Assembly (NCBI RefSeq): GCF_040729435.1
Contig: NZ_CP160398.1
Coordinates: 4,066,001 to 4,130,000 of the forward strand
Length of the DNA: 64,000 nt
From: Pseudomonas sp. HOU2
GTDB taxonomy: Bacteria > Pseudomonadota > Gammaproteobacteria > Pseudomonadales > Pseudomonadaceae
Reading direction: 5' to 3'
Below the pieces are notes generated by a model, which had not been told where the DNA came from, searched no databases, and saw only the letters and a program-made list of their open reading frames with translations. The position numbers were made by a program, and so were the translations under genes. Shown one piece after another: positions 8,917-28,126 of this stretch (its first letter is position 1; every line of letters begins with the position of its first letter).

Positions 8917-10905
8917 ATGTCGCCTCGTACGCAGTTCAACGGTCCGGCCCGGCAACGCGGGGCGATCGGGTTGATGGCGGCTGCCACCCTCAGTCTGGCG
9001 CTGGTGTTGATGCTGTTGGTGGTCGACACCGGTCGGCTGTACATGGAGCAGCGCAAGTTGCAGCGGGTGGTCGACAGCGCGGCGCTGGAAGCGGTCAGTC
9101 GCGGCGGCAATTGTCAGTCCGGCCTGAGCGCGGCCACGTATGCCGGGCAAAGCGCGGTGCGCAATGGCTACATCGTCGATAGCAACAACACCCTCGCGAC
9201 GACCTGCGGCAGCGTGCAGACCGCCGCTAGCGGCCTGCGTGCGTTTACCGTCGATGCAACCCAGTCGAGCGCGATCAAGGTGGTCGCCAGCCGCACGGTC
9301 ATCACCAGTTTTGCCGGCGGCGTGCAGGCCTTGTTCAGCGGCTCGGCGGTCAGCCTCAACACCACGCTCAACGCCTCGGCCGTCGCCGCGCAACCGATAC
9401 CAACGGTGGCGCAACTGAACATCCGCAGTACGCTGGCGAACATCAACACTGCCCAGTCGAATATTCTCAATCCGCTGTTCTCCGGGCTGCTTGGCGGCAA
9501 CGTCAACCTCACGGCACTGGGTTGGGATGGCCTGCTCAATACCGACATCAACCTGCTCAGCTACCTCAATCAACTGGCGATCAACCTCAACGTCGCCGCC
9601 GGCAACTACACGCAACTGCTCAACACTCAGGCCACGGTCACCCAGCTGATTCAGGCGGCGGCCACGGTGGTCCAGCTCAATGGTGCGACCGCTACGGTGA
9701 TCACTGCGCTGGGTCAGTTGCAGGTTGCGGCGATCAATGCTGCGCCGGTCAAACTCGGTGACATCCTGCAGTTGCAGACCGGTACCACGGCGGCCGGGCT
9801 GGATGCCAACCTGCAGTTGCTGCAACTGATTCAGGGCGTGGTGCAACTGGCCAACAGCAAAAGCGCGGTGGCCGCGACCTTGCCGATCAGCGTGCTGGGG
9901 CTGGCGAATGTCACGGTGCGGGTCAAGGTGATCGAGCCACCGCAGTTCTCGGCGATTGGCGACCCGGCGCGGGCCAAGGCCAATCCGTTGGGGGCGGACC
10001 GGATTTATGTGCGCACGGCACAGATTCGCACGATGCTTTCGGTGGATCTGCCGGTATTGAGCGGGGTGGCCGGGCTGACCAATGCGGTGCTGGGGCTGGT
10101 GGGTGGGCTGACCTCGACACTCAATGCGGTGCTCGGTCTGAATCTGGTGGCAGTGCTGAACTCGGTGGTATGTCTTGGCTGCCAGCAACTGGATCCACTG
10201 CTTTTGCCGTCGCCGAGAATCGATATCAGCCTGGATGCCGGTGGTGCCAAAAGTTATGTTACCGATTACAGCTGCCCGACCGGATCCACCGGTACCAAGA
10301 GCCTGACCGCACATACCGTTACCTCTATTGCCGACCTCAAACTCGGCAAGATCGATCCCACTAATGCGTTCTCATCCTCAGCCGAGCCGACGGTCACGCC
10401 ATTGCCGCTGATCGACCTGGGCATCGCGACGTGTTACAGGGTCGCCGGGCTCGGCAGTTGCGACCCCAATTCGCATATTCAATACGGTGCCGGCGGCATC
10501 GCAATCATGCTGGATACCCCCGTCGCGCAAAACTCGCAGGACTTGCTGTTTTCCAGCGGTACGCCATTCGCGACACCCGCCAACCTGAAACTGCCGCCAA
10601 GCGTGCAATCAGCTGCGCCGACCTCCAATATCGTCGGCAGCCTGAGCAACACGTTGGCGGGGATCAATTTGATCGTATACAGACCGCAAGGCAGTAATCC
10701 ACTGGGCGCAATCGTGACTGGCGTCGCCTCATTGATCAGTGACGTCACCAATCATCTGCTGCCTGTGGTGACCAACCTGGTCAGCCCGTTGCTCGATCCA
10801 TTGCTCAACAATCTGCTTAAAAGCCTGGGCATCAACCTGATGGACGTCGACGTCGGCGCCAACATGACCTGTGGCCAGACCGGCAAGGCCTATCTGGTGA
10901 TCTAG
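8917..10905 (+). CDS. tadG: Tad pilus assembly protein TadG
   Basis: TadG-type protein, 662 residues: an N-terminal Tad-like segment (RQRGAIGLMAAATLSLALVL, the single membrane anchor at about residues 14-37) followed by YMEQRKLQRVVDSAALEAV, which is typical of TadE/TadG-like pseudopilin domains. The long Asn/Leu/Thr-rich remainder is periplasmic and may contact the growing Flp pilus. There is no clear von Willebrand MIDAS motif. It is convergent with the PprA-like kinase and the two ORFs overlap by 4 bases. In P. aeruginosa tadG sits beside tadD; here it is at the far end of the locus. Confidence 0.82.
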   Translation: MSPRTQFNGPARQRGAIGLMAAATLSLALVLMLLVVDTGRLYMEQRKLQRVVDSAALEAVSRGGNCQSGLSAATYAGQSAVRNGYIVDSNNTLATTCGSVQTAASGLRAFTVDATQSSAIKVVASRTVITSFAGGVQALFSGSAVSLNTTLNASAVAAQPIPTVAQLNIRSTLANINTAQSNILNPLFSGLLGGNVNLTALGWDGLLNTDINLLSYLNQLAINLNVAAGNYTQLLNTQATVTQLIQAAATVVQLNGATATVITALGQLQVAAINAAPVKLGDILQLQTGTTAAGLDANLQLLQLIQGVVQLANSKSAVAATLPISVLGLANVTVRVKVIEPPQFSAIGDPARAKANPLGADRIYVRTAQIRTMLSVDLPVLSGVAGLTNAVLGLVGGLTSTLNAVLGLNLVAVLNSVVCLGCQQLDPLLLPSPRIDISLDAGGAKSYVTDYSCPTGSTGTKSLTAHTVTSIADLKLGKIDPTNAFSSSAEPTVTPLPLIDLGIATCYRVAGLGSCDPNSHIQYGAGGIAIMLDTPVAQNSQDLLFSSGTPFATPANLKLPPSVQSAAPTSNIVGSLSNTLAGINLIVYRPQGSNPLGAIVTGVASLISDVTNHLLPVVTNLVSPLLDPLLNNLLKSLGINLMDVDVGANMTCGQTGKAYLVI

Positions 10906-14167: not shown

Positions 14168-14638
14168 ATGCAGAGTTTAGTTCTCCTGATCTGGCTGGCC
14201 ATGTGCGCCGCCCAGGATGCCCGGCAACGGCGCATCTCTAATGTGCTGACGTTCGGTGCAGGAGCGCTGGCGCTGATCTACCTGCTGGTCACCGGGACGA
14301 CGTGGCTCGGTGCCGATGCGCAGCAGGGACTTTGGGCGGGCGTGATTGCTCTGGTGTTGACCTTGCCGGGGTATTTCATGGGCCGGATGGGCGCAGGCGA
14401 TGTGAAATTAATGACAGCCATGGGCCTTGCGACGAACGGTTTATTCATTCTTTGTGCGTTTATCGGCGCGGGTATCGCCAGTCTGCTCTGGCTACTGATC
14501 GCGCCAAGAGTCTGGCTTCATATGAGTCAACGACTTAGAGAACATCTTCGATATATGGAGCCGGGAGCGTCAAAGAAGCTGCCATTTGCACCGTTCGTGC
14601 TGCTGGGGGTACTGGCTTCGATTCATTGGATCCATTAG
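14168..14638 (+). CDS. fppA: Type IVb prepilin peptidase FppA
   Basis: A24-family aspartyl prepilin peptidase that cleaves Flp and the TadE/F pseudopilins. The protein has 156 residues and several membrane helices but no N-terminal methyltransferase domain, as expected for the Tad type. Both catalytic aspartates are visible: Asp17 in AAQDARQRRI and Asp78 in MGAGDVKLM. It is divergent from the TadE/F gene and lies upstream of pprB, matching PA4295-PA4296 order. Confidence 0.9.
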   Translation: MQSLVLLIWLAMCAAQDARQRRISNVLTFGAGALALIYLLVTGTTWLGADAQQGLWAGVIALVLTLPGYFMGRMGAGDVKLMTAMGLATNGLFILCAFIGAGIASLLWLLIAPRVWLHMSQRLREHLRYMEPGASKKLPFAPFVLLGVLASIHWIH

Positions 14639-14690: not shown

Positions 14691-14756
14691 AAATGAAGTG
14701 GTTACATTGCCAAAGTGCAGAAAAAGTCAGCTTTGGCCCGAGCAATGGAGTGGTTC

Positions 14757-15542
14757 GTGAACAAGCTTACGTCGGCGGTAAAAGTGCTCGTGGTCGATGA
14801 TCAACCGTTGATTGTCGAAGAGTTGTGCGAGTTTCTCGAAAGCAGCGGTTACCGCTGTGTGCCGTGTGAATCCAGCACGCAGGCGATCGAACGGTTCAGC
14901 GAAGACGTGGAAATCGGCCTGGTGCTGAGCGATCTGCACATGCCGGACATGGACGGTATTCAACTGGTGCAGGAGCTGCAACGCATCAGCGGCAAACACC
15001 GGGTGTTCGAAGCGATCATGCTCACCGGGCGCGCCGACAAACAGGACGTGATCAAGGCGCTGCGCGCCGGGATTGCCGATTACTATCAGAAGCCGATCCA
15101 GCTGGATGAACTGCTCGAAGGCGTGAAGCGTCAGGAAGCGGCCCTGCAAGAGCGGCACAAGAATGTGCAGTTGGGACACCTGAACCAGAAGCTGCAGTTT
15201 CTCTCGGAATCCATCGACGATCTCTACCAGGACCTGGACAAGGTCCGGCGCAATCCGGCGGCGGTGGTCAAAGACATGCTCGGCGGCGACAGTGCCGAAG
15301 CCGAGCAGGAGATTCCGGCGATCTTCAATCAGCTGTCACCACGGCAACTGGACGTGGCGCGGCTGGTGGGCAAAGGGCAGACCAACTATCAGATCGCCTG
15401 CGAGTTGGGCATCACCGAAAACACCGTGAAATTGTATGTCTCGCAGGTGTTGCGCCTGACCCATATGCACAACCGCACCCAGTTGGCATTGGCGCTATCA
15501 CCCAGTGCTTCGGCCGCCCGTCAGCGTGTGACAGCACACTGA
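14757..15542 (+). CDS. pprB: LuxR-type response regulator PprB
   Basis: Response regulator of the pilus and adhesion programme. An N-terminal receiver has KVLVVDDQPL, the phosphorylation site Asp59 in LSDLHMPDMDG and the conserved Lys in YYQKPIQ. A LuxR/NarL helix-turn-helix with LSPRQLDVARLVGKG and ITENTVKLYVSQVL fills the C-terminus. Length and position match P. aeruginosa PprB. The GTG at 14757 is chosen for its GGAG site 6 bases upstream; an ATG at 14745 or a GTG at 14715 would extend it by 4 or 14 residues. Confidence 0.87.
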   Translation: MNKLTSAVKVLVVDDQPLIVEELCEFLESSGYRCVPCESSTQAIERFSEDVEIGLVLSDLHMPDMDGIQLVQELQRISGKHRVFEAIMLTGRADKQDVIKALRAGIADYYQKPIQLDELLEGVKRQEAALQERHKNVQLGHLNQKLQFLSESIDDLYQDLDKVRRNPAAVVKDMLGGDSAEAEQEIPAIFNQLSPRQLDVARLVGKGQTNYQIACELGITENTVKLYVSQVLRLTHMHNRTQLALALSPSASAARQRVTAH

Positions 15543-16958: not shown

Positions 16959-17894
16959 ATGAACAGTCGCGTCACCATGGGTCTTGCAGCAGTGCTGCTG
17001 TTGGGAGCAATCGTCGTCGGTTACTGGGGCCTGGTCCTCAGTCGGCAACCGACTCCCGTTGCCCAGGTGCCTGCCGCCCCGGCAGTCGCTATGGAAAAAA
17101 CCGTGGCCGCCGCCGAAGATCAGACCCGCCAGCCAGTGGTCGTGTTGTTGCACGATGTCCCGCCGTTCACGCCGCTCACGGCTGCCGATGTGGCAGTGGA
17201 GAAACTGCGCAGTGCGCCAGCCGGCAGCCTTTCCAGCGTCGACCAAGCGGTGGGTCGCACGCCGTGGCGGCACCTGAGCGCTGGCACCTGGCTCAACGAT
17301 GAAAGCTTTCAGGCCGGTGGCTCACTGGCACGGATGATTCACAGTGATGAGCGCGCGTTGACCGTGGCCGTGGACGAAGTGATTGGCGCCGCCGGGCAAC
17401 TGATCCCCGGCGACTACGTTGATGTGCTGCTCTACCTGCGTCAGGACGCGAGCAATCTGCAGCAGTCGGCGCAGATCGTCGTACCGGCGATGCGCGTGCT
17501 CGGTGTTGGTGAGCAATACGGCCTGACCAACGATGGGCAGCCCGCCAACCCAGCCTTGAGCGCCGACGAAAAACTCAAACAGGATCAACGCCGGATTGCT
17601 GCGCGCACCGTGGTGCTGGCGGTGCCCGAACAATTGCTCAGCCGGATGATGCTCGCCACTCAGGTCGGCACGTTGCGCCTGGCCGTGCGCAGCAGCGAAG
17701 AACAGCGTCTGGCCAAGTACTGGGCCGGTGAAACCCAGTCACCGGCGCACGTGGATAACGCCAACAGCCAGCTCTTCCAGTTCACCCAACTGGCCCTCGG
17801 TGCCGCGCCGAAAGCGCCGGCCGCTGGCGGCCATGGCGGTGCGCGGCCGATGGAAGTGATCCGCGGCAATCAGCTTTCCCAACAAGCCCCATGA
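16959..17894 (+). CDS. rcpC: Tad pilus protein RcpC/CpaB
   Basis: A 311-residue periplasmic protein with one N-terminal membrane anchor (VTMGLAAVLLLGAIVVGYW) and a SAF-like domain (VPPFTPLTAADVAVEKL), as in CpaB/RcpC, which supports the secretin channel. The first gene of the main tad operon; its stop overlaps the rcpA ATG (ATGA at 17891-17894). The C-terminus is Ala/Gly-rich and probably flexible. Confidence 0.88.
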   Translation: MNSRVTMGLAAVLLLGAIVVGYWGLVLSRQPTPVAQVPAAPAVAMEKTVAAAEDQTRQPVVVLLHDVPPFTPLTAADVAVEKLRSAPAGSLSSVDQAVGRTPWRHLSAGTWLNDESFQAGGSLARMIHSDERALTVAVDEVIGAAGQLIPGDYVDVLLYLRQDASNLQQSAQIVVPAMRVLGVGEQYGLTNDGQPANPALSADEKLKQDQRRIAARTVVLAVPEQLLSRMMLATQVGTLRLAVRSSEEQRLAKYWAGETQSPAHVDNANSQLFQFTQLALGAAPKAPAAGGHGGARPMEVIRGNQLSQQAP

Positions 17895-19138
17895 CTGAGC
17901 AAGGATCCACGTGCATGCAGAGTCGATTCAGGCCGCTATTAACACCTTTAGTCCGGGCCTTGATACTGATGGGACTGTCGATCAACGCCGCCATCGCGGC
18001 CACCGGCAATTGCTCGGCACTCGGCCGTATGCCGCCGGTGATCGAGATCGGCGAAGGCTTCCAGCAGGACATCCAGTCGCCGGTGGCGATCACCCGCGTG
18101 GCCATCGGCGACCCGAAAATCGCCGACGTGCACGACACCGGCAGCGCCTCGTTTCTACTCACCGGGGTGGCTCCCGGCGCCACCAGCCTGATGGTCTGGA
18201 CGTCGTGTTCCAGCGAGCCGCGCCAGAGCATGGTGTTCGTCAAGGGCAGTGCCACCGCCGCACTGACCAGCGCCAGCAGAATGCCTTCCGACGATCCGAC
18301 ACTGCCCTCGCAAGTGCAGACCGACATTCGTTTCGTCGAAGTCAGCCGCACCAAACTCAAGGAAGCCACCGCTTCGCTGATCGGCACCCGGGGCAATTTC
18401 CTGTTTGGTTCGCCCGGTACGTTGCCACCCATCGACGGCGTGCCGACGCCGAGACTGCCGGTGGATAACGGCTTGTTCAACTTTTCGTGGATCGGTGGCA
18501 AGACCATGGCGATCATCAACGCCCTGGAAACCAGCGGTTTCGCCTACACCCTTGCGCGCCCCAGCCTGGTGGCGCTGAGCGGGCAGAGCGCAAGCTTTCT
18601 GGCCGGTGGTGAAATCCCGATTCCGGTGCCTAGCGCCGGCAGCGACAACGTGTCGATCGAATACAAGGAGTTCGGTATCCGCCTGACCCTGACGCCGACT
18701 GTCATCAGCCACGACCGCATCGCGCTGAAAGTCGCACCGGAAGTCAGCGAACTGGATCTGAGTAACGCCGTGCAAATCGCCGGCACTACCGTGCCGGCCC
18801 TGACCATTCGCCGCACCGACACCAGCGTTTCGCTGGCCGACGGCGAAAGCTTCGTGATCAGCGGCCTGATCAGCACCACCAACACCTCGCAGGTGAACAA
18901 GTTTCCGGGGCTGGGCGATATCCCGGTGCTCGGCGCCTTCTTCAAAGGCTCGCAGATCAAGCGCGAAGAGCGTGAACTGCTGATGATCGTCACCCCGCAC
19001 CTGGTGCAGCCACTGGCGGCGGACGCGCAACTGCCGTCGTTGCCGGGGGAAAAACTGCGCAACTACGACCCGAATTTCTACCGCATGTTCTTCCTCGAAA
19101 ACGGCAACTTCGACAAACGCAGTGGGCTGTCCCAATGA
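17891..19138 (+). CDS. rcpA: Tad pilus outer-membrane secretin RcpA/CpaC
   Basis: A 415-residue type II/III-family secretin that forms the outer-membrane pore for the Flp pilus. It has a signal peptide (VRALILMGLSINAAIAA), an N-terminal BON-like pilus domain with VAIGDPKIADV, and a secretin core with SGQSASFLAGGEIPIPVP and the late VNKFPGLGDIPVLGAFF motif. The ATG at 17891 overlaps the rcpC stop; an ATG at 17915 with an AAGGA site is an alternative. It also overlaps tadZ by 4 bases. Confidence 0.92.
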   Translation: MTEQGSTCMQSRFRPLLTPLVRALILMGLSINAAIAATGNCSALGRMPPVIEIGEGFQQDIQSPVAITRVAIGDPKIADVHDTGSASFLLTGVAPGATSLMVWTSCSSEPRQSMVFVKGSATAALTSASRMPSDDPTLPSQVQTDIRFVEVSRTKLKEATASLIGTRGNFLFGSPGTLPPIDGVPTPRLPVDNGLFNFSWIGGKTMAIINALETSGFAYTLARPSLVALSGQSASFLAGGEIPIPVPSAGSDNVSIEYKEFGIRLTLTPTVISHDRIALKVAPEVSELDLSNAVQIAGTTVPALTIRRTDTSVSLADGESFVISGLISTTNTSQVNKFPGLGDIPVLGAFFKGSQIKREERELLMIVTPHLVQPLAADAQLPSLPGEKLRNYDPNFYRMFFLENGNFDKRSGLSQ

Positions 19139-20325
19139 ACCAGAACCTGAGCCAGACCTTTCTGGCGATCACCCGTAACAACACCGATCTGGAGTGGCTG
19201 CAAGGCGCACTCGCGCCGCTGGGCCAGGTGGTGAGCGCCGGGGCCGGGAGCCTGGACGAATTGCTGGCGCTGGTCGACGTCACCTTCGCCAGCCTGGTGT
19301 TCGTCGGCCTCGATCGCGAGCATGTGGTCGCGCAGAGTGCGTTGATCGAAGGTGCGCTGGAAGCCAAACCGATGCTCGCCATCGTTGCGCTCGGCGATGG
19401 CATGGACAACCAACTGGTGCTCAATGCCATGCGTGCCGGCGCCCGGGATTTCGTCGCCTACGGTTCGCGCGCCAGTGAAGTCGCCGGGCTGGTGCGGCGC
19501 TTGAACAAGCGCCTGCCACCGGTGGCGGCCAACACGCAGCTTGGCGGCCTTACGGTGTTGTACGGCACGCAGAGCTATTCGGATGGCGCGCTGCTGGCCA
19601 ACCATATGGCGCAGGTGGTGCAAAAGAGCGGACAGCAGACCTTGCTGCTGGATCTGGGCCTGCCGCGCGGTGACAGCCTGGCGCTGCTCGGGCTCGAGAG
19701 TTCGTTCCACTTCGGCGATGCCTTGCGTCACTTGCGCAGGCTCGACGCGACGCTGATCGACAGTGCCTTCACCAGCGCTGAAGCGGGTCTGCGGATTCTG
19801 GCGTATGCCGGCAGCGACGAGCCGCTGGAAAGCACCAGTGCCGCCGAGTTGTACATGTTGCTCAGCGCCTTGCGCCAACACTTCCAGCACATCGTCGTGA
19901 ACCTCACCGGGCAGTCCGACAGTGAAGCCTTGCGCACGTTTGTCAGCCACTGCGACAAGCTGATCTGGTACACCGATCAGAACGTGCTCAACTGTCGCCG
20001 CAACCTCGCTGTACTTAACTTGTGGCGCGAGAAGGGCATGAAGCTCGACCACGCGCGTTTGCTGGTGGACGGCTATCTGGGCAGCGTGGCCCCGGATGCT
20101 GAAACCCTGGGCAAAACCTTCAACCTCGAAGTGATCGCGGTATTGGCCGCCAATGCCGAAGTGCGCCTGAACGCCAAGAACCAGGGCGTCAGCCTGTTCG
20201 AACTGGCCCCGCGGGAAAAACTCACGCAAAGCCTGCGGGCTCTCGGCGAACGTCTGGCCAAGCGCTCGGAAGGCCTGGCCAAACCCAAGGTCACCTGGTT
20301 CGACCGCTTGCGAGGCACCTCATGA
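19135..20325 (+). CDS. tadZ: Tad pilus localisation protein TadZ, degenerate MinD-like
   Basis: TadZ/CpaE homologue, 396 residues, which places the Tad machine in the cell. An N-terminal receiver-like half is followed by a MinD/ParA-like half. Where a Walker A lysine motif should be, the sequence reads LTVLYGTQSYSDGALLA, with no GKS/GKT, although the later LLLDLGLPRGDSLALLGL strand is retained. So it probably does not hydrolyse ATP in the usual way. ATGA overlaps join it to rcpA and tadA. Confidence 0.85.
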   Translation: MNQNLSQTFLAITRNNTDLEWLQGALAPLGQVVSAGAGSLDELLALVDVTFASLVFVGLDREHVVAQSALIEGALEAKPMLAIVALGDGMDNQLVLNAMRAGARDFVAYGSRASEVAGLVRRLNKRLPPVAANTQLGGLTVLYGTQSYSDGALLANHMAQVVQKSGQQTLLLDLGLPRGDSLALLGLESSFHFGDALRHLRRLDATLIDSAFTSAEAGLRILAYAGSDEPLESTSAAELYMLLSALRQHFQHIVVNLTGQSDSEALRTFVSHCDKLIWYTDQNVLNCRRNLAVLNLWREKGMKLDHARLLVDGYLGSVAPDAETLGKTFNLEVIAVLAANAEVRLNAKNQGVSLFELAPREKLTQSLRALGERLAKRSEGLAKPKVTWFDRLRGTS

Positions 20326-21590
20326 GCGCGGAAAAACTGTTCGGCGCGGTACACCACGGCGCGGTCGGCAATACCGATCACGAAGGCCTGAAACTGGTCC
20401 TGCACCGCTACATCATCGACGCCATCGAAGAGTCGGGGAAAAACCTGCTGGAGGGCTCGCGCCAGTTGCTGGCGCAGTTTGTCACCGACAAGGTCGCCGA
20501 ATACATCGCCCGCCTGCACCTGGCGATTTCCCGCTACGAGATGGAGCGCCTGGCCGAGGAAATCGTCGACGAACTTACCGGTTTCGGTCCGCTGGAAGTG
20601 CTGCTGCGCGATCAGTCAGTGACCGAGATTCTGGTCAACGGCCCGCACCGGGTATTCATCGAACGCGATGGCGTGCTGCATCAAAGTGACCTGCGTTTTA
20701 TCGACGCGCATCACGTCGAGCGGGTCATGCAACGGATTCTCGCACCACTCGGACGGCGCCTCGACGAGTCTTCACCGATGGTCGATGCGCGCCTGCCGGA
20801 CGGCAGCCGGGTCAACGCGATCATCCCGCCAATCGCCCTCGACGGCCCCTGCCTGTCGATTCGAAAGTTCCGCAAGGACATGCTCAAGAGCAGTGACCTG
20901 ATGGCGATGCAGACCATCGATCTGGCGATTTTCGAGTTCCTCCAGGAGGCGGTGGGCAAGCGTTGCAACGTGCTGATCAGCGGCGGTACCGGCACCGGCA
21001 AGACCACGTTGCTGAACATCCTCAGCCAATTGATCAACCCCCACGAACGTCTGGTGACCATCGAAGATGTCGCCGAATTGCAGCTCGGCCACCCGCACGT
21101 CGTGCGCCTGGAAACCCGCCCGCCGAACGCCGAGGGCCACGGTGAAGTCAAGGCCAGCGACCTGATCCGCAACGCCCTGCGCATGCGCCCCGACCGAATC
21201 ATTCTCGGCGAGATCCGAGGCGTTGAAGTGGTCGATGTGCTGACCGCGATGAACACCGGTCACGACGGCTCGATGAGCACCGTGCACGCCAACAATGCCC
21301 AGGATGCGTTGTTGCGGCTGGAGACGCTGGTGGGGCTGACCGGTCGCTCGATCGCCGAGCGCACCTTGCGCCAGATGATCTGCGCGGCGCTCGACGTGAT
21401 CATTCAGCTGACCCGCATGCCCGACGGCCGCCGCTGTGTCAGCGAGGTGGTGGAAGTGGTCGGCATCCGCGAAGACGTCTACGTCACCAACACCTTGTTT
21501 CGCCTTGATCGGCGTACCGGTTTCGGCTTCCTGCGCGAAGCGGTCAATCCGGCGGGCGACAAGTTGCGCCACGAGACCCACCTGGGCTGA
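20322..21590 (+). CDS. tadA: Tad pilus secretion ATPase TadA/CpaF
   Basis: Hexameric GSPII-E-type ATPase that powers Flp extrusion, 422 residues. Landmarks: GPLEVLLRDQSVTEILVNGP early on, Walker A GGTGTGKTTLLN at about residues 220-231, the Asp box TIEDVAELQL, Walker B RMRPDRIILGEIRG and a His box near GHDGSMSTVHAN. Overlaps tadZ by 4 bases and is followed after 18 bases by tadB. Confidence 0.95.
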   Translation: MSAEKLFGAVHHGAVGNTDHEGLKLVLHRYIIDAIEESGKNLLEGSRQLLAQFVTDKVAEYIARLHLAISRYEMERLAEEIVDELTGFGPLEVLLRDQSVTEILVNGPHRVFIERDGVLHQSDLRFIDAHHVERVMQRILAPLGRRLDESSPMVDARLPDGSRVNAIIPPIALDGPCLSIRKFRKDMLKSSDLMAMQTIDLAIFEFLQEAVGKRCNVLISGGTGTGKTTLLNILSQLINPHERLVTIEDVAELQLGHPHVVRLETRPPNAEGHGEVKASDLIRNALRMRPDRIILGEIRGVEVVDVLTAMNTGHDGSMSTVHANNAQDALLRLETLVGLTGRSIAERTLRQMICAALDVIIQLTRMPDGRRCVSEVVEVVGIREDVYVTNTLFRLDRRTGFGFLREAVNPAGDKLRHETHLG

Positions 21591-21608
21591 CCGCATGGGA
21601 CTTGCATC

Positions 21609-22493
21609 ATGATCGGACCGGCCATTCTCATCCTCCTGTGCCTGATCCTGCTCGGGCTGTCGATCTGGCTGTTCGTGCACGGCATCCACAAGACCAACAA
21701 CGAACGGGTGCTCAATCGCCTCGCGGCGGGGCAGCCGCAACTGGTCGCACAGAAACCGGCCTGGGTCGGGCTTGAACGGATGTTTTTGCGCGCGGGGCTT
21801 GGCCGTCCCACCGAACGTTTCGGGCTGTGGATGACCCTGTGGGGCGTGGCGATTGCCCTCGGTTATCTATTGGCAGACTGGATCGGTTTGCTGGCGATGC
21901 TGCTGGCGCCGCCGCTGATCCTGCGCCTGTACATTTCCTGGCTGTACCACCGGCGGATCAAACGCATGATCGAGCAGTTGCCGCAACTGCTCGACTACAC
22001 CGTACGCAGTCTCAAGTCCGGCCGCACCTTGAGCGACGCGGTCATGGGCGGCATCGAATCGAGCGAGGATCCGCTGAAAAAAGCCATGGGCCGGGTGCAG
22101 CGCAACGTGCAACTGGGGGTCAATCTGCCGGATGCGGTCAGCGATTTCGCCGAACTCTACGAACAGGACGAATTGCGCATGTTCGCCCTCGGCCTCAAGG
22201 TCAACCATCGCTACGGCGGCAACGCCAGCGAACTGCTGGAGAACCTGATCAAGCTGATTCGCGAGCGTGACCAGGGCGCCCGGCAACTGCGCGCACTGAC
22301 TGGCGAAACACGCATGACCGCGTGGGTGCTGGGTTCGCTGCCGGTGATTCTGGTGAGTTACTTCATGCTGACCAACCCCGGCTACATGCTCGGCATGTGG
22401 CACGACTCCGGTGGTCGGACCATGTTGATCATCGCCGTGGTGTTGCAAGTGACCGGTTGCCTGGCGCTGTGGCGCATGTTGCGGAGTATTTGA
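21609..22493 (+). CDS. tadB: Tad pilus inner-membrane platform protein TadB
   Basis: A GspF-family membrane protein of 294 residues with two helices near residues 5-20 and 80-115 and two at the C-terminus. The cytoplasmic part carries RRIKRMIEQLPQLLDYTVRS, typical of TadB, with GRTLSDAVMGGI. It pairs with tadC, whose ATG is one base past its stop. Confidence 0.92.
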   Translation: MIGPAILILLCLILLGLSIWLFVHGIHKTNNERVLNRLAAGQPQLVAQKPAWVGLERMFLRAGLGRPTERFGLWMTLWGVAIALGYLLADWIGLLAMLLAPPLILRLYISWLYHRRIKRMIEQLPQLLDYTVRSLKSGRTLSDAVMGGIESSEDPLKKAMGRVQRNVQLGVNLPDAVSDFAELYEQDELRMFALGLKVNHRYGGNASELLENLIKLIRERDQGARQLRALTGETRMTAWVLGSLPVILVSYFMLTNPGYMLGMWHDSGGRTMLIIAVVLQVTGCLALWRMLRSI

Positions 22494-22494
22494 A

Positions 22495-23379
22495 ATGGTC
22501 TATCTCGCCGCTCTGATGCTGCTGCTCGGCGCGCTGTTGCTGGTGGTCAATCACCTGCTGACGGAGCGGCGCCGGGTGCGCCAGGTCAACCAGCGGTTGC
22601 AGGGGCATCTGGTGCGCGAGAACCGTTTTGGTAACTGGCTGCGTGCTCTGGGCAACAGCAGGTTCGGCCAGCGCTCAGTGAGCATCGACAGCGAAACCCA
22701 GACCCTGCTCAGTCGCCTCGGCTGGCGCCGCGCCAGTGAGCGCTCGCTGTTCGCCGCCTGCCAGATCGGCACGCCGCTGCTGGCGTTGGGGCTGGCGATC
22801 TTTTTGCAGGAAGTGTTTTTTCCGCACGCCGCCAACCGCTGGATCGTCCCGATGCTCGCCACCGGTGCCGGTTACCTGTTGCCAAAGCGCTTGCTGGCTT
22901 ACGCCGCCGGGCGCCGGCAGAAAACCATCGCCGTGGAAATATCCACGTTCATCCCGCTGCTGCGCATCCTCTTCGAGTCGGGCATGGCGGTCGAACAAGC
23001 CTTGCGTGTGCTCAGCACCGAGGGGCAAAAACTGCTGCCGGAACTGACTCGCGAACTGCGCCTGATTCTGGCCCGGGTCGACTCGGGCCTGGAGTTGGGG
23101 CTGGAACTGAACAAAGCCTCGGTGATGCTCGCGGTCGATGAGTTCACCGACACCTGCGTGATCCTGCAGCAATTGATTCAGCAGGGCGGCGGAGCGATGA
23201 AATCGCTGCTCGCGCTCAAGCAATTGCTCGACGACCGCCGCCTGACCCGACTGCAGGAATACATCTCGAAGATGTCGGCGAAGATGTCGGTGGTGATGAT
23301 GCTGTTTCTGTTTCCTGCCTTGCTGATCGTACTGGCCGGCCCGGGGTTCACCGCGATTACCCGGGCATTTGCAAACTGA
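22495..23379 (+). CDS. tadC: Tad pilus inner-membrane platform protein TadC
   Basis: GspF-family partner of TadB, 294 residues. An N-terminal anchor, then IAVEISTFIPLLRILFESGM and AVDEFTDTCVILQQLIQQGG, and a final helix in MLFLFPALLIVLAGPGF give the TadC pattern. One base separates it from tadB; 23 bases separate it from tadD. Confidence 0.92.
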   Translation: MVYLAALMLLLGALLLVVNHLLTERRRVRQVNQRLQGHLVRENRFGNWLRALGNSRFGQRSVSIDSETQTLLSRLGWRRASERSLFAACQIGTPLLALGLAIFLQEVFFPHAANRWIVPMLATGAGYLLPKRLLAYAAGRRQKTIAVEISTFIPLLRILFESGMAVEQALRVLSTEGQKLLPELTRELRLILARVDSGLELGLELNKASVMLAVDEFTDTCVILQQLIQQGGGAMKSLLALKQLLDDRRLTRLQEYISKMSAKMSVVMMLFLFPALLIVLAGPGFTAITRAFAN

Positions 23380-23402
23380 CGTTGGCTCATGGAGAGCGTT
23401 TG

Positions 23403-24125
23403 ATGAAAGCACTGATTGTCTTGGCAAGTCTGTTGTTGCTCGGTGGTTGCGCCACCGACGGTCAGGCGCCGTGGTCGGCGATGCTCGCACCGACCAGTTG
23501 CAGCAAGCTCGATTCCGAACAGGAACTGGCGTTGAACCTGGCGGACGATCTGGCCAACGACGGCAAGCTGCACGCCAGCCTGGCCAACCTGCAGAGCCTG
23601 CCCGATAAACTGGTCGAGGTACGCCTGCGCAAGGCCAGGGTTTACCGCTTGCTCGGGCGCAGTGAAGCCGAGCCGCTGTATCGCGGATTGCTCGGCACCT
23701 GCCTGACGGCGGACGCCGAACATGGCCTGGGCCAGATCTACGCCGCCCGTGGCGACAACGGCCAGGCCCAGGCGCACTTGCAGCGCGCGGTACGTCTGGC
23801 GCCGACCAATGAAAAAATCCGCAATGACCTGGGCGTGGTCTACCTCAACCAGTTGCGTCTTGAGGACGCACGCTTCGAATTCCTTACCGCTATTGAGCTC
23901 AAGCAGAACGATCAACTGGCCACGCTGAATCTGGTGAGTTTGCTGCTGTATCAGAACAACTGGCAGCAAGCCGCCGAAATCGTCAGCCGCGCGCACCTGA
24001 CGCCGGAGCAGTTCGCCGACGCCCAGGCCCGCGCGGAAAAACTCAAGGTACCGACCAAGGCTACGCCACCCGCCGGCAATCAGGTGGCGGTGGTGGCGGA
24101 CCCGCAACCGTCGACGCTCAAGTGA
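23403..24125 (+). CDS. tadD: Tad pilotin-like TPR lipoprotein TadD
   Basis: A 240-residue lipoprotein with lipobox LGGC (Cys16) and tetratricopeptide repeats (GLGQIYAARGDNGQAQAHLQ, then DLGVVYLNQLRLEDARFEF). TadD proteins help secretin assembly or stability. The start ATG at 23403 follows GGAG at 23391. Last core gene of the operon before the DUF3613 gene. Confidence 0.9.
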   Translation: MKALIVLASLLLLGGCATDGQAPWSAMLAPTSCSKLDSEQELALNLADDLANDGKLHASLANLQSLPDKLVEVRLRKARVYRLLGRSEAEPLYRGLLGTCLTADAEHGLGQIYAARGDNGQAQAHLQRAVRLAPTNEKIRNDLGVVYLNQLRLEDARFEFLTAIELKQNDQLATLNLVSLLLYQNNWQQAAEIVSRAHLTPEQFADAQARAEKLKVPTKATPPAGNQVAVVADPQPSTLK

Positions 24126-24142
24126 CATCCAGGGAGATTGCC

Positions 24143-24415
24143 ATGAACACCTTGTACCGTGTGTGCTGCCTGACCCTGCTCAGCCTGCCGATTGCGGCCC
24201 AGGCGATCGACGCCGGCCCGGCCTCGGCGCAGCAACAGGAAACCGAAGGCTGGCTGGTGCTGCAAAGCCGCAACCAGGCCGCCTCGACCAAGCCGCAAAC
24301 CGCCACGGCGGCGGAGCGCGAACAGGCGATGCAGCGCTGGTTGAAAAAGTACAAATACGAGATTCCGGATTTCTACGACCCGGATGCGGGTGGCAAGATC
24401 GAGACCAAGAACTAG
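24143..24415 (+). CDS. DUF3613 small secreted protein of the tad operon
   Basis: A 90-residue protein with a cleavable signal peptide (CLTLLSLPIAAQA) and a conserved C-terminal part (REQAMQRWLKKYKYEIPDFY), as in DUF3613. It lies 17 bases after tadD with its own AGGGAG site, so it belongs to the operon. Its role in pilus biogenesis is unknown. A large hairpin follows. Confidence 0.75.
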   Translation: MNTLYRVCCLTLLSLPIAAQAIDAGPASAQQQETEGWLVLQSRNQAASTKPQTATAAEREQAMQRWLKKYKYEIPDFYDPDAGGKIETKN

Positions 24416-24482: not shown

Positions 24483-26153
24483 CTACAACTGATAGCTGAA
24501 ACTGATGCTGTAACGCGCCCGCCGATTGAACGTATCCAGCGCTTCATCCGACATCGGCTTGGCGGCCTCCAACGCAATGTTGTAGTACTTGGCATCGCCA
24601 AAACGCAGGCCTACGGCTGCCGATGACAGGTCATTGCTCTGCACCGCCAGCTTGTTGAACCAGGTTTTCGAACGGTCCAGCACCACGTAGGGTTGCAGGA
24701 TGCGCACCCAGTTGCCGTCGCGATTGAAGCTGTAGTTGACCTCATAAGCCGCGCCCCAGCCCTTGTCGCCCGACGCCTGATCGTCCGGGTAGCCACGGCC
24801 GAAATTCTGCCCGCCGAACACCGCACGTTCACTGTCGGGCAGGGTGTCATCACTCCAGTACAGCGCGGCCGACAGTACGCCCTGCCAGTTGTCGAAAAAC
24901 TTGTCGCTCTGTACGCCGGAGAGACGCAGGCGCAGGAAGTTCAGGTCCAGCGCCGGGTTGTTGGAATGCGCGCCCATGCTGTCGAGGCCTTGATACACGC
25001 CACCACTGAGAATCCGCAGCTGCCGGGCATCGGTCTTGCGCCAGTCGCCTTCGAATGCGAGGGCGCGCACGTTGGTGCGCTCTTCGATGCTGATCGGGTA
25101 GCCGACCACGTTGTAGCGGTTTTTGTCATCCACTGCATAGAGCCGCGCTCCCGCGTTAAGCAGCTCGTTGGAGGCGGCAATGAACGGGTGGCTGACGCCG
25201 ATCGAGTAGCGGTCATCTTCCTTGTGCGGCTTGAGTTCAAAGCCATCGCTGGTCAGCACATTGGTGCCCGGATCCGCGCGATAGCGTGAGGCGAACAGGC
25301 TCAGTTGCGTGCCTTCGCTGTTGAGGAACTGGTTGTAGTCCACACGGTAGTAATGCTCATGATCGTCCCCCGGCGGAAACAGCCCGCTGAGGGTCAACTG
25401 TTCGCCCATGGCGGTCTGCGAATTACTGCTGACCCCCAGCAAAGCCTGGGTGCCATTGCGGTTGTCTTCAGTGGTGCTCATGGTGCTGGTGAACGGTTTG
25501 CGACTGGCCTGGGCCACCAGTGTTGTTGCGCCGTCGGTGGTGCCGGGCGGCGGCACTTGCGCCTGGATGGTCACCCCGGGAATGCGGGTCATCAGGGTGG
25601 TGTAGCGTTCGAAGGTTTTGCGAGTCAGCGGGCGTTCGGCCTGGATTTTTGCCGCCAGCTCGTCGAGCAGGCCTTTGACTCGGCCGACATCGCCTTGCAC
25701 CTGCACGTCGCGCACATAACCCTCGACCAGCACCACTCGGGCTACGCCGTCGTCGAAACGTTGTTGCGGCAGGAAAGCGTAGGACAGCAGATAGCCGTCC
25801 TTCTGGTAGCGTCGAGTGATGTCGCGGGTGGCTTCGATCAGCTCGGCAAGGCTGGTCTGGTGGCCGATGAGAGGTTTGTAGACTTCGGCCAGTTCGTTGA
25901 GCGGGTAGATCGTGCCGCCCTCGATCTGCACGGTTTTCAGATTGACTTTGGTGTCCATCAACAGCGGCTGCGCCGTGGCCGCGCCGGGGTCGGGGACTTG
26001 CAGAGGCGTGGCCGCGGGGCGATAGGCATCTGCCGGCAGGTTCGGCACGGGCAGGTTGCGGGTGGTTTCGTTGCTGTTGAGAAAGCTGGGCAGGGTGTCG
26101 GCGAGGGCGGCGGAACTGATACTGAGGAACAGCAGGGATGCCATTACGCGCAT
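24483..26153 (-). CDS. Two-partner secretion outer-membrane transporter (ShlB/FhaC/HecB family)
   Basis: A TpsB pore protein, 556 residues. It has a signal peptide (MASLLFLSISSAALA), a POTRA-2-type ShlB domain from about residue 60 (VQIEGGTIYPLNELAEVYKP, RYQKDGYLLSYAFLPQQ, VVLVEGYVRDV) and a C-terminal 16-strand barrel ending in SISFSYQL, with an FGRGYPDDQ region before the last strands. The ATG at 26153 follows a GGAGT site. The usual TpsA partner with a haemagglutination-type TPS domain is not next to it; instead a Gly-rich lipoprotein gene lies 134 bases upstream in the same direction. Confidence 0.88.
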   Translation of the reverse strand: MRVMASLLFLSISSAALADTLPSFLNSNETTRNLPVPNLPADAYRPAATPLQVPDPGAATAQPLLMDTKVNLKTVQIEGGTIYPLNELAEVYKPLIGHQTSLAELIEATRDITRRYQKDGYLLSYAFLPQQRFDDGVARVVLVEGYVRDVQVQGDVGRVKGLLDELAAKIQAERPLTRKTFERYTTLMTRIPGVTIQAQVPPPGTTDGATTLVAQASRKPFTSTMSTTEDNRNGTQALLGVSSNSQTAMGEQLTLSGLFPPGDDHEHYYRVDYNQFLNSEGTQLSLFASRYRADPGTNVLTSDGFELKPHKEDDRYSIGVSHPFIAASNELLNAGARLYAVDDKNRYNVVGYPISIEERTNVRALAFEGDWRKTDARQLRILSGGVYQGLDSMGAHSNNPALDLNFLRLRLSGVQSDKFFDNWQGVLSAALYWSDDTLPDSERAVFGGQNFGRGYPDDQASGDKGWGAAYEVNYSFNRDGNWVRILQPYVVLDRSKTWFNKLAVQSNDLSSAAVGLRFGDAKYYNIALEAAKPMSDEALDTFNRRARYSISFSYQL

Positions 26154-26287
26154 AGGACACTCCATGGTCAGATCACAGCGCTGAGTTAAATTTTTCCTAA
26201 GAAAAAAGCGGAAGACTCGTGGGAATCTTCCGCCCTCAACCAAGCGTAGGCGCTGTAGGTGAGGCCGTCGAATCGGCCAGGTGCAAT

Positions 26288-27895
26288 TTAGCGTTTGTTG
26301 CCTCCAAGAGCGCCGGTCAGGCCACCGAGTACACCACCCAGGCCACCGGTTGCGGTGCCACCGGTGGCGGTGCCGCCGTTGAGCAGGCCGCCGACTGCAC
26401 CAACGGTTGCGCCGACGTTGCTGACCACACCGCCGACGGCGGTAGTGACCGGGTTGTTGGTGGACGCGATGGTGGCGCCAACGGTGCTGACTGCGCCGCC
26501 GACCTGGCCGGTGAGACCGGCGACCGGTGCGCCCAGGCCTGTCGCTGCGCCAACTTGTTGGGTGACGCTGGTGACTGCACTGGTGACCGGATTAAGCCCG
26601 GCACCGACGGTGGCGCCGACGCTGGCCAGTGGCGAGGTAGTGGCGGTGATCGGAGTACCCGAGCCGCCGAGTACGGTGTTGAGCGAGGCGACGGTATTGC
26701 CCAGTCCGCCAGCCGTGACGCCGCCGGCACTGACCACGCCGTTGGTGCTGCCAGCGTTCAGCCCGGAGCCGACGTTGACCACGGCGCCGCCAACCGTTTG
26801 CAGCAAGCCGGTACCGCCCAGGCCGCCGCCGAGACCGCCGCCCAATCCACCACCGGTGCTGGTGCCGTTATCCACCAGCCCGCCGGCTTTGCCAACCGCG
26901 GTGCCGACGTTGGTCAACGCGCCGCCAACGGTGTTGGTCAAGGCGTTGCCGCCGCCAGCACCGGTTACCTGACCGCCCACGCCTTTGACGGCGCCACCGA
27001 CCTGGCCGAGTACGCCATTGAGCGGAGCGCCGAGGCCGGTCGCAGCGCCGACTTTGTCGGTGGTGCTTTCAACCATCGCAATCACGGGCACCAGACCGTT
27101 GCCGACACTTTTGGTCACTGAACCGAGTGGGCCGGTGGTGGTGGCCAGGCTCAGGGTGTCGCCGAGCATGGTGACTTTTTCACCGACGCCGTCGAGTACC
27201 GGGGCGACTTTGGTGACCACGCCGCCGACAACCGGAACGCTGCCGGTGGCGGTCGCCAGCTTGCCGCTCAGGTCCGATACACCGTTGCCGACATCGCTGA
27301 CCACGCCGCCCACCGAGGATGCGGTGACGCCCAGACCGTTGTCGACGGTGCCCAGTTTGCCAATGCCGTTGGCCACGCCATTGCCGAGGGTGCTGACCAC
27401 GTTGCCAGTGGTGTTGGCCGCGCTTTGCACGACGCCACCGACGACCGGTACGGTGCTCAGCGAATCGCCGACCTGGCCGACGCCATCACCGACGTCTGCG
27501 ACGGTTTTGCCGACATCCTGCACCAGGGTGGTGGTCACCAGCGGAGTGGTGGTCGGGTTGGTTGGACCCGTAGGGTCGGTCGGATTGGTTGGGTTGGTCG
27601 GATCGGTCGGGTTGGTTGTACCCGTACCGCCAGTACCGCCAGTACCGCCGGTGCCTCCGGTACCACCTGTGCCTGCGGTATCGGTGCCGCCGGTGCCGCC
27701 GGTGCCGCCGGTGCTGCCAGTGCCACTGCTACCGCCAGTACCACTAGTGCCGCCAGTGCCCGACGTCGCGCTGTCTGGCGAAGAGCTGCCGGAGCTGCTG
27801 TGATGGCCGCCACCGCCGCTGCTGCAGCCAGCGAGGCCAAGGGAGAGGATCAATGCCAGAGCTGTTGCCGATTTGCACCACACTTGAGTTTTCAT
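26288..27895 (-). CDS. Gly/Val/Thr-rich 'collagen-like' repeat surface lipoprotein
   Basis: A 535-residue secreted repeat protein. Order of parts: signal peptide with lipobox LAGC (MKTQ start at 27895, AAGGAAT site), a Ser/Gly-His linker, a Gly/Thr-rich tract of GTG and TGG units, a Pro-rich stalk of NPT/DPT units, then a long Val/Gly-rich region in which PVVGGVV and VGAATGLGAP plus GQVGGAV recur. No true Gly-X-Y collagen triplets with Pro are seen, so the common label 'collagen-like' describes composition only. It is probably an adhesin or matrix protein. It stands directly upstream of tpsB. Confidence 0.72.
   Translation of the reverse strand: MKTQVWCKSATALALILSLGLAGCSSGGGGHHSSSGSSSPDSATSGTGGTSGTGGSSGTGSTGGTGGTGGTDTAGTGGTGGTGGTGGTGGTGTTNPTDPTNPTNPTDPTGPTNPTTTPLVTTTLVQDVGKTVADVGDGVGQVGDSLSTVPVVGGVVQSAANTTGNVVSTLGNGVANGIGKLGTVDNGLGVTASSVGGVVSDVGNGVSDLSGKLATATGSVPVVGGVVTKVAPVLDGVGEKVTMLGDTLSLATTTGPLGSVTKSVGNGLVPVIAMVESTTDKVGAATGLGAPLNGVLGQVGGAVKGVGGQVTGAGGGNALTNTVGGALTNVGTAVGKAGGLVDNGTSTGGGLGGGLGGGLGGTGLLQTVGGAVVNVGSGLNAGSTNGVVSAGGVTAGGLGNTVASLNTVLGGSGTPITATTSPLASVGATVGAGLNPVTSAVTSVTQQVGAATGLGAPVAGLTGQVGGAVSTVGATIASTNNPVTTAVGGVVSNVGATVGAVGGLLNGGTATGGTATGGLGGVLGGLTGALGGNKR
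27540..27775 (-). repeat. Minisatellite inside the repeat lipoprotein gene
   Basis: Short units of 6-9 bases such as GCCGCCGGT/GTACCGCCA and GGTCGGATTGGTTGG repeat in tandem, coding for the Gly/Thr-rich and NPT/DPT tracts. Copy number can be expected to vary between strains. Confidence 0.8.
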
Positions 27896-28089: not shown

Positions 28090-28126
28090 AAAAAAAGGCC
28101 TTGAAAATCAAGGCCTGGGGTTTTTC
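28090..28126 (-). terminator. Terminator of the MaoC/FabG transcript
   Basis: AGGCCTTG and CAAGGCCT stem with an AAAAT loop. On the minus strand it is followed by a run of T, and it lies about 70 bases past the hydratase stop. Confidence 0.85.

What the first reader, a model, noticed from the sequence alone, without database searches (positions are those of the whole stretch)
24483..27895. TpsB transporter beside a Gly/Val-rich repeat lipoprotein, next to the Tad locus, with no TpsA
A clear ShlB/FhaC-type pore gene is preceded in the same direction by a 'collagen-like' lipoprotein gene. A classic TpsA with a haemagglutination TPS domain is not in the window. Either the lipoprotein is an unusual cargo, or the transporter's partner is elsewhere, or the pair is a new type of surface display tied to Tad pili. 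The direct sight is gene order and lipobox; the cargo link is inference.
Basis: partly seen in the sequence, partly recalled or inferred. Interest (0 to 1): 0.72.

Follow-up and report, generated by a model that had tools for sequence, protein, structure and literature searches.

The report
Lipoprotein–TpsB pair beside Tad pilus
A bacterial outer-membrane export pore is usually encoded beside a helical, lipid-anchored protein and a sticky pilus, which suggests that this branch of pores displays lipoproteins on the cell surface instead of its family's usual kind of cargo.

Summary
A 535-aa Gly/Val/Thr-rich lipoprotein (CLP, Pfam Collagen_mid) is followed after 134 bp by a 556-aa TpsB transporter, which meets a Tad pilus locus end to end; no TPS-domain TpsA is in the window. 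The pair is conserved. CLP has this TpsB directly downstream in 48 of 48 CLP-positive genomes among 119 of the genus. In a second family (probably Burkholderiaceae; handles unnamed) the same 46 of 100 genomes hold both, adjacent in 40. These TpsBs form one clade, 100/100, apart from 17 others. 'Collagen-like' is a misnomer: CLP has a 3.5-residue heptad pattern, is modelled helical, and shows neither TPS domain nor beta-helix. Best reading: a dedicated TpsB displays helical lipoproteins on the cell surface in Tad-linked adhesion. Partnership is well supported; transport is inferred. Against exclusivity, 12 of 60 TpsB genomes of the genus lack a recognisable CLP. The B. cenocepacia homologue BCAL1524 is reported in vesicles and promotes autoaggregation; no passage that I read names its exporter.

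The parts
24483..26153 (-). tpsB-like gene, 556 aa: signal peptide, POTRA_2 (residues 71-145), second POTRA-like segment in a weak model, ShlB/FhaC-type barrel, L6 motif GRGY (residues 452-455)
   Evidence: (CdiB 6wim 4.3e-7)
26288..27895 (-). CLP lipoprotein gene, 535 aa: lipobox LAGC, Gly/Thr linker (about residues 30-117), heptad region from about residue 118 with Collagen_mid matches at about 152-342 and 417-507, Gly/Leu-rich C terminus ending NKR
27824..27835 (-). lipobox L-A-G-C of the CLP lipoprotein (residues 21-24), Ser at +2
   Evidence: direct sight; lipobox with Ser at +2 in 78 of 78 Pseudomonas CLPs
26199..26233 (-). intrinsic-terminator-like hairpin and T run between the CLP and tpsB genes
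   Evidence: pattern found in 77 of 78 Pseudomonas intergenic regions (no shuffle control); the standard scan does not list it
28096..28116 (-). terminator-like hairpin upstream of the CLP gene, after the maoC/fabG genes; CLP-tpsB is then a transcription unit of its own (inference)
   Evidence: 6 terminator-like sites found in the region, 4.0 expected in shuffles
16959..24415 (+). Tad/Flp pilus assembly genes (rcpC, rcpA, tadZ, tadA, tadB, tadC, tadD-like TPR protein, DUF3613 gene), convergent with tpsB
8917..10905 (+). TadG-like Flp pilus gene
   Evidence: PF13400, 3.9e-8
14168..14638 (+). prepilin peptidase (Peptidase_A24; FppA-like, name recalled)
14715..15542 (+). response regulator with GerE domain (PprB-like, name recalled)

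Best explanation
CLP and TpsB are a dedicated pair: a variant two-partner secretion system whose cargo is an outer-membrane lipoprotein. CLP is made as a Sec lipoprotein precursor, lipidated at Cys24 and sent to the outer membrane (Ser at +2; sorting rule recalled, localisation inferred). Its long flexible linker and its Gly/Val heptad region, aromatic-free and weakly charged, are kept unfolded, picked up by the POTRA domains and passed through the TpsB barrel to the surface, where they fold into helical coiled-coil-like bundles held by the lipid anchor (all inferred). One TpsB probably serves several CLPs, also in trans. The displayed CLP acts in cell-cell and surface adhesion together with the Tad/Flp pilus, next to which the genes lie and with which the Burkholderia homologues are reported to be co-induced. 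Shown: gene content, pairing, co-occurrence, clade structure, lipobox, helical periodicity, Tad linkage. Inferred: transport, topology, adhesive role in this organism.
For: Pairing in 48 of 48 CLP genomes among 119 of the genus and in 79 of 80 Pseudomonas loci, the other being cut 129 bases before tpsB. In the second family 46 of 100 genomes have CLP and the same 46 have the TpsB, adjacent in 40; six genomes of one genus hold both unlinked. All 13 over-cut-off CLP genomes of a 398-genome phylum sample have a CLP-TpsB pair. TpsBs of this kind form one clade, 100/100, apart from 17 other TpsBs. Lipobox found in 78 of 78 Pseudomonas CLPs and 61 of 64 of the second family; median of 0 aromatic residues in the mature proteins. 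CLP gene first, then a terminator-like site, then tpsB (77 of 78) would fit cargo made in excess of pore. Two or more Tad components beside 29 of 29 fetched adjacent loci of the second family (of 40), 69 of 80 Pseudomonas loci, and 5 of 5 fetched unlinked CLP loci of six genomes. Literature on B. cenocepacia: CLPs BCAL1523/1524 beside an outer-membrane protein BCAL1522 and the flp operon (PMC10224339, one section and passages); BCAL1524 in outer-membrane vesicles, its deletion lowers autoaggregation (PMC10303873, passages); BCAL1523/1524 induced with flp genes on contact with host membrane vesicles (PMC7970998, passages).
Against: No transport was or could be tested here. CLP lacks the TPS domain that TpsB POTRAs are known to recognise (PMC5422565 passages). 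12 of 60 TpsB genomes of the genus have no Collagen_mid protein over the cut-off, and none was found with the A1 profile (an empty answer without a positive control); there the frame upstream looks like a penicillin-binding protein in 12 of 12 (by eye). 62 of 135 Collagen_mid matches in the second family are not within 5 kb of a TpsB (matches, not genes). In the branch of TpsBs that holds the second family the Arg of the L6 VRGY/F motif is missing. No Tad genes were found in 5 of 13 regions of the phylum sample (L127-L130 with pairs, L123 with a lone CLP) nor by TpsB in 6 of 6 unlinked loci. The orphan TpsA is statistically associated with the TpsB in the genus. A helical model of a repetitive sequence is weak proof of fold (pTM 0.43).
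Confidence: 0.7

Rival explanations
1. CLP is not cargo but a lipoprotein part of the export machine: its disordered linker sits in or near the TpsB barrel (as RcsF does with outer-membrane proteins) or it acts as a periplasmic tether, while the true substrate is another protein, for example a Tad component.
For: TpsB without CLP in 12 of 60 genomes, all 12 by Tad genes (5) or by the response-regulator and prepilin-peptidase genes (7). CLP lacks a TPS domain. The linker is low-complexity and modelled without structure.
Against: 1 to 5 Collagen_mid matches per genome with mostly one TpsB (49 TpsB matches in 46 genomes, one gene split in two), which fits several cargos per pore better than a fixed subunit; CLP gene, then terminator-like site, then tpsB; BCAL1524 has a loss-of-aggregation phenotype of its own (PMC10303873 passages).
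Confidence: 0.16
2. TpsB serves an orphan TpsA coded elsewhere (here the 4204-aa open frame with TPS domain at G000:C1 about 5.907 Mb); the CLP neighbour is accidental.
For: No TpsB was seen in the fetched flanks of that TpsA (about 10.6 kb upstream, 10.8 kb downstream), and none of the genome's three POTRA_2 places is there. In the genus sample the two genes are associated (32 of 60 TpsB genomes against 7 of 59 others, p 1.6e-6, not corrected for kinship).
Against: 28 of 60 TpsB genomes lack it, among them 10 of the 12 without CLP; 7 genomes have it without this TpsB (E 1e-20 or better). CLP goes with TpsB in 48 of 48 and 46 of 46 genomes.
Confidence: 0.05
3. CLP and TpsB are both merely passengers of the Tad locus neighbourhood (a surface-adhesion island), with no direct molecular link to each other.
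For: Each can keep its link to Tad when the other is lost or moved: unlinked CLPs by Tad in 5 of 5 fetched loci, CLP-less TpsBs by Tad or the regulator/peptidase genes in 12 of 12.
Against: Pairing persists where no Tad gene was found near (L127-L130), and co-occurrence persists where the genes are unlinked (6 genomes), with TpsB away from Tad in 6 of 6; the TpsB clade is specific.
Confidence: 0.07

Closest known systems
Type Vb two-partner secretion (FhaB/FhaC, ShlA/ShlB, CdiA/CdiB)
   Same: Outer-membrane transporter with ShlB-type POTRA and barrel, GRGY at the L6 motif in the window protein, putative cargo gene next to pore gene.
   Different: The neighbour is a lipoprotein of about 500 aa without TPS domain, with helical heptad repeats instead of a beta-helix; the transporters form a clade of their own, one branch of which lacks the L6 Arg.
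Bcc-CLPs of Burkholderia (BCAL1523, BCAL1524 and others; PF15984 adhesins)
   Same: Same Pfam family, lipoproteins, low-complexity flanks, neighbourhood of the flp operon (PMC10224339, one section and passages).
   Different: That paper proposes them as adhesins and lists BCAL1522 as a putative exported heme-utilisation-related protein; what I read does not link it to export, and the main text has no 'ShlB', 'two-partner' or 'hemolysin'.
Slam-dependent surface lipoproteins (TbpB/Slam1)
   Same: A dedicated outer-membrane pore often coded beside the lipoprotein that it brings to the surface (PMC7857515 and PMC9090332 passages).
   Different: Slam has TPR repeats and a predicted 14-strand barrel; here the pore is a TpsB with POTRA domains. 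The surface-lipoprotein review names Slam, BAM, a type V autotransporter (NalP) and type II secretion, and its main text has no 'two-partner' or 'TpsB'.
Lipidated autotransporters (NalP, SphB1) and lipidated class IV CdiA
   Same: Lipid-modified proteins exported by type V systems (PMC8151025 and PMC8510554 passages).
   Different: NalP/SphB1 carry their own barrel; class IV CdiA is acylated on an internal Lys by CdiC and not at a lipobox.

Membership tests
TpsB transporter (type Vb) | ShlB-type POTRA domain | tested here: met
   PF08479 over cut-off in the window protein and in 5 of 5 distant TpsBs of the clade scanned
TpsB transporter (type Vb) | ShlB/FhaC barrel domain | tested here: met
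   PF03865 over cut-off in the same six proteins
TpsB transporter (type Vb) | 16-strand barrel with two POTRAs in the fold | tested here: inconclusive
   model of mean pLDDT 56.8 shows two POTRA-like folds and a strand-rich C-terminal part, too weak to count strands
TpsB transporter (type Vb) | L6 VRGY/F motif | tested here: inconclusive
   GRGY in the window protein, RGY invariant in the 23 rows of A2; kept in 10 of 12 CLP-less rows; not found in 15 of 15 rows of the other branch after discarding one spurious regex hit (L125), with Gln or Leu in place of Arg in the six of these rows that were aligned
TpsA cargo | TPS domain (PF05860) | tested here: not met
   Pfam finds only Collagen_mid in CLP (two distant CLPs likewise); PF05860 only at two far places in the genome
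TpsA cargo | beta-helix repeats | tested here: not met
   AlphaFold model helical, ten-residue mean pLDDT 66-88 over residues 121-340, pTM 0.43; hydrophobic period 3.5, little power near 2.0
Collagen-like protein | long Gly-X-Y tracts forming a triple helix | tested here: not met
   longest run 6 triplets of G and T, no Pro in residues 45-92. Other CLPs were not counted; one (L025) has Pro-containing GPT-type triplets in its linker (seen)
PF15984 Collagen_mid family | profile match over the curated cut-off | tested here: met
   157.7 bits against 31.1
Surface lipoprotein | lipobox signal peptide | tested here: met
   LAGC
Surface lipoprotein | exposure on the outer face of the outer membrane | not testable with these tools
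   only indirect: homologue BCAL1524 reported in outer-membrane vesicles (PMC10303873 passages)

The most novel reading that the evidence does not exclude
A separate branch of two-partner secretion brings bundle-forming alpha-helical lipoproteins without TPS domain to the cell surface, as the partner system of Tad pili in Pseudomonas and Burkholderia relatives: a further route for surface lipoproteins besides Slam, BAM, type V autotransporters and type II secretion, and a case where type V export cannot be driven by beta-helix folding.
Probability: 0.6. Interest if true: 0.82.

Novelty: new variant of a known kind. Interest (0 to 1): 0.72.

Why it matters
If true, it names the missing exporter of a family of surface lipoproteins (PF15984) that includes a reported autoaggregation and virulence factor of Burkholderia, adds a pore class to the few known exporters of surface lipoproteins, and shows that a TpsB can handle a substrate with neither TPS domain nor beta-helix. 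That makes the question of how such substrates are recognised and what drives their translocation testable with a small pair from a harmless Pseudomonas. It also ties a secretion system to Tad pili.

Tried and rejected
Collagen reading: rejected. Beta-solenoid TpsA in disguise: rejected on periodicity and model; Foldseek gave no PDB match at E 0.001 or better, the two best being designed antiparallel coiled-coil bundles at E 0.062 and 0.33. Orphan TpsA as obligate partner: rejected. Hidden CLP in the 12 CLP-less genomes: A1 profile search empty (no positive control in that call), and an ad hoc scan for Gly-rich lipoprotein frames in the 12 loci gave no plausible gene. RNA element near the pair: none in Rfam at E 0.1. 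Promoter of the sigma-70 type: none found. Protein search with CLP gave only 12 hits, since low-complexity words filled the candidate list. TpsB fold model too weak to use.

Rows dropped and limits: two genus genomes with Collagen_mid below the cut-off were not counted as CLP-positive (G054, no TpsB; G491, match on another contig than its TpsB, in a frame that does not look like a CLP, L147). In the phylum sample 5 of 18 genomes were below the cut-off and not followed. One search kept 80 of 115 relatives. Of the 40 adjacent genomes of the second family 29 were fetched, and five more as L121, L122, L125, L126 and L133. The tree uses 6 of the 12 CLP-less TpsBs and 19 CLP-adjacent ones of my choosing; POTRA hits in frames of about 770-840 aa (BamA/TamA-like by size) and short frames were left out. 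The first tblastn count of CLP neighbours was 77 of 80; L055 and L071, missed there, have CLPs when read directly. Eight CLP starts are overextended, and three frames of the second family are too long at the start for the lipobox search. The shuffles used a coarser grid of periods than the observed value; one search used the same grid for both. Tad components were called by tblastn with the window's proteins at E 1e-8, so a secretin or ATPase alone could be a type II secretion gene; two or more components were required.
Full report
What is there. On the minus strand, window 27895-26288 codes a 535-aa lipoprotein (signal peptide, lipobox LAGC, then SSGGGGHH) and 26153-24483 a 556-aa protein with a ShlB-type POTRA domain and a ShlB/FhaC barrel. 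Among solved structures the best sequence matches are CdiB (6wim, 4.3e-7) and TpsB4 (2mhj, 4.3e-6). The two genes are 134 bp apart. Between them lies a terminator-like hairpin with a T run, found in 77 of 78 Pseudomonas intergenic regions by a simple script (no shuffle control was run, and the standard scan, does not list it). Another hairpin at 28096-28116 lies between the pair and the maoC/fabG genes upstream. tpsB ends head-on against a Tad pilus locus on the plus strand.

Is the pairing real? A genome-contig scan with TpsB kept 80 Pseudomonas loci of 115 relatives. A full CLP was read in 78 of them and the end of one matched in L036, whose contig is cut; L080 begins 129 bases before tpsB and cannot tell. 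In an even sample of the window's genus, 48 of 119 genomes have Collagen_mid over the cut-off and 60 have this TpsB at E 1e-30 or better. In all 48, CLP lies directly upstream on the same strand, 424-1115 bp from domain match to tpsB. Each of the 60 TpsB hits is at 1.1e-170 or better, so the call is all or none at this threshold.

Beyond the genus. In 398 genomes of the phylum 13 have Collagen_mid over the cut-off. All 13 have a CLP-TpsB pair (the window, plus 12 of the 13 regions fetched; the other region, L123, is a second CLP of a genome that has a paired one). In 40 the two are adjacent; in six, all of one genus, they lie apart but still co-occur. The chance of identical sets of 46 is 1.4e-29 if genomes were independent, which they are not.

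Is it a dedicated transporter? A maximum-likelihood tree of 45 TpsBs puts 19 CLP-adjacent, 3 unlinked and 6 CLP-less rows in one clade with support 100/100; 17 other TpsBs, two of this genome and 15 of other CLP genomes, stay outside. The CLP-less rows nest inside, next to the window's own group, which suggests a loss of CLP and not an older state (inference from the tree).

What is CLP? Not collagen in the window protein (longest Gly-X-Y run 6 triplets of G and T). Hydrophobic residues recur about every 3.5 residues with little power near 2.0; 0 of 2000 shuffles reach this in each of four overlapping stretches, and the same holds for 78 of 78 Pseudomonas CLPs and 60 of 61 others tested, of 64. 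The AlphaFold model (32 rows, mean pLDDT 65.7, pTM 0.43) is helical, with ten-residue means of 66-88 over residues 121-340 and the linker without structure. Mature CLPs have a median of zero aromatic residues. Of 64 CLPs of the second family 64 have Lys, Arg or His among the last four residues, and many end in a Gly/Leu-rich stretch.

The Tad link. Two or more Tad components lie in 69 of 80 Pseudomonas loci (6-kb flanks, several cut by contig ends), 29 of 29 fetched adjacent loci of the second family (of 40), and 8 of 13 regions of the phylum sample. In the genus where the pair is split, Tad is beside CLP in 5 of 5 fetched loci and beside TpsB in 0 of 6. In the 12 CLP-less genomes of the window's genus, TpsB is by Tad genes in 5 and by response-regulator and prepilin-peptidase homologues in the other 7. 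The arrangements differ: convergent in the window, same direction in L131/L132, divergent in the second family, so the link has survived rearrangement.

Literature. Searches for the pair in print: (open-access library only). The closest work is on B. cenocepacia: PF15984 lipoproteins BCAL1523/1524 next to BCAL1522 (outer membrane, 1686 bp) and the flp operon (PMC10224339; outline, one section and passages). BCAL1524 was found in outer-membrane vesicles, and its deletion lowers autoaggregation and virulence in wax-moth larvae (PMC10303873, passages). BCAL1520, 1523 and 1524 are induced with flp genes on contact with host membrane vesicles (PMC7970998, passages). BCAL1520 and several flp genes change in quorum-sensing mutants, and that paper places BCAL1524-1520 and BCAL1525-1537 as two putative operons in one flp cluster (PMC2753556, passages). 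That BCAL1522 is a TpsB of this clade is my inference from order and size; its sequence was not fetched. None of the passages names an exporter for CLPs. A survey of matrix components and Tad loci in pseudomonads has no 'collagen', 'TpsB', 'ShlB' or 'hemolysin' in its main text (PMC7716237, passages). The TPS review describes TpsA proteins as beta-helical with a TPS domain recognised by the POTRAs, and the L6 VRGY motif as essential (PMC5422565, passages). CLP breaks the first two; the other branch of TpsBs breaks the third.

Against. Transport is not shown. TpsB persists without CLP in 12 of 60 genomes of the genus, so there it has another substrate, or the CLP has become unrecognisable (empty, but with no positive control). 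Many CLP matches of the second family are not within 5 kb of a TpsB (62 of 135), which fits action in trans but also allows independence. The orphan TpsA is statistically associated with the TpsB in the genus, though plainly not obligate. Tad genes were not found near every pair.

Verdict. The pair is real, widespread and specific; it most likely is a two-partner system with lipoprotein cargo that works with Tad pili. As a TpsB the window protein is a member of the known family. As a TpsA, CLP fails two tested features, so in this reading it works like a TPS cargo without being a TpsA.

Noticed in passing
L120:10591-19001 and L134:1-5202 (G000:C1 about 5906590-5919200): Giant TPS-domain protein (4204-aa open frame) beside genes that look like a type II secretion system and a DING/PstS-like protein (by eye), with no TpsB seen in the fetched flanks; homologues at E 1e-20 in 39 of 119 genus genomes.
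   Followed up: partly
L118:2676-6086 (G000:C1 about 490675-494085): Another TpsB next to a protein with DUF2341, Laminin_G_3 and MotA/TolQ/ExbB domains and no TPS domain in the scan: a second TpsB with an unusual neighbour in the same genome.
   Followed up: no
L135-L146: In 12 of 12 CLP-less loci a frame that looks like pbpC ends about 100-370 bp before the first matched tpsB base (by eye); an alpha-2-macroglobulin-like frame lies further upstream in the three loci L137, L142 and L144 (by eye).
   Followed up: partly
L121, L122, L124-L126, L133, L165-L167, L170, L173, L177, L181, L183, L186: CLP-type TpsBs of this branch lack the Arg of the L6 VRGY/F motif (15 of 15 by regex after one spurious hit was set aside; Gln or Leu in the six aligned), while the following GD.G segment is kept in these six.
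   Followed up: partly
window 26288-26340: Gly/Leu-rich C-terminal end of CLPs with Lys, Arg or His among the last four residues in 64 of 64 CLPs of the second family; possible export or anchoring signal.
   Followed up: no
window 24122-24415: Small DUF3613 gene closing the Tad gene run, directly facing tpsB.
   Followed up: no
L025:3971-5866: This CLP has Pro-containing GPT/GPA-type triplets in its linker, closer to real collagen repeats than the window's GGT repeats.
   Followed up: no
L001-L004 genome G000 does not show it; genome G571, contig C10, 2995-4646: TpsB reading frame split in two overlapping pieces in one genome, a frameshift or an assembly fault; no locus was fetched.
   Followed up: no
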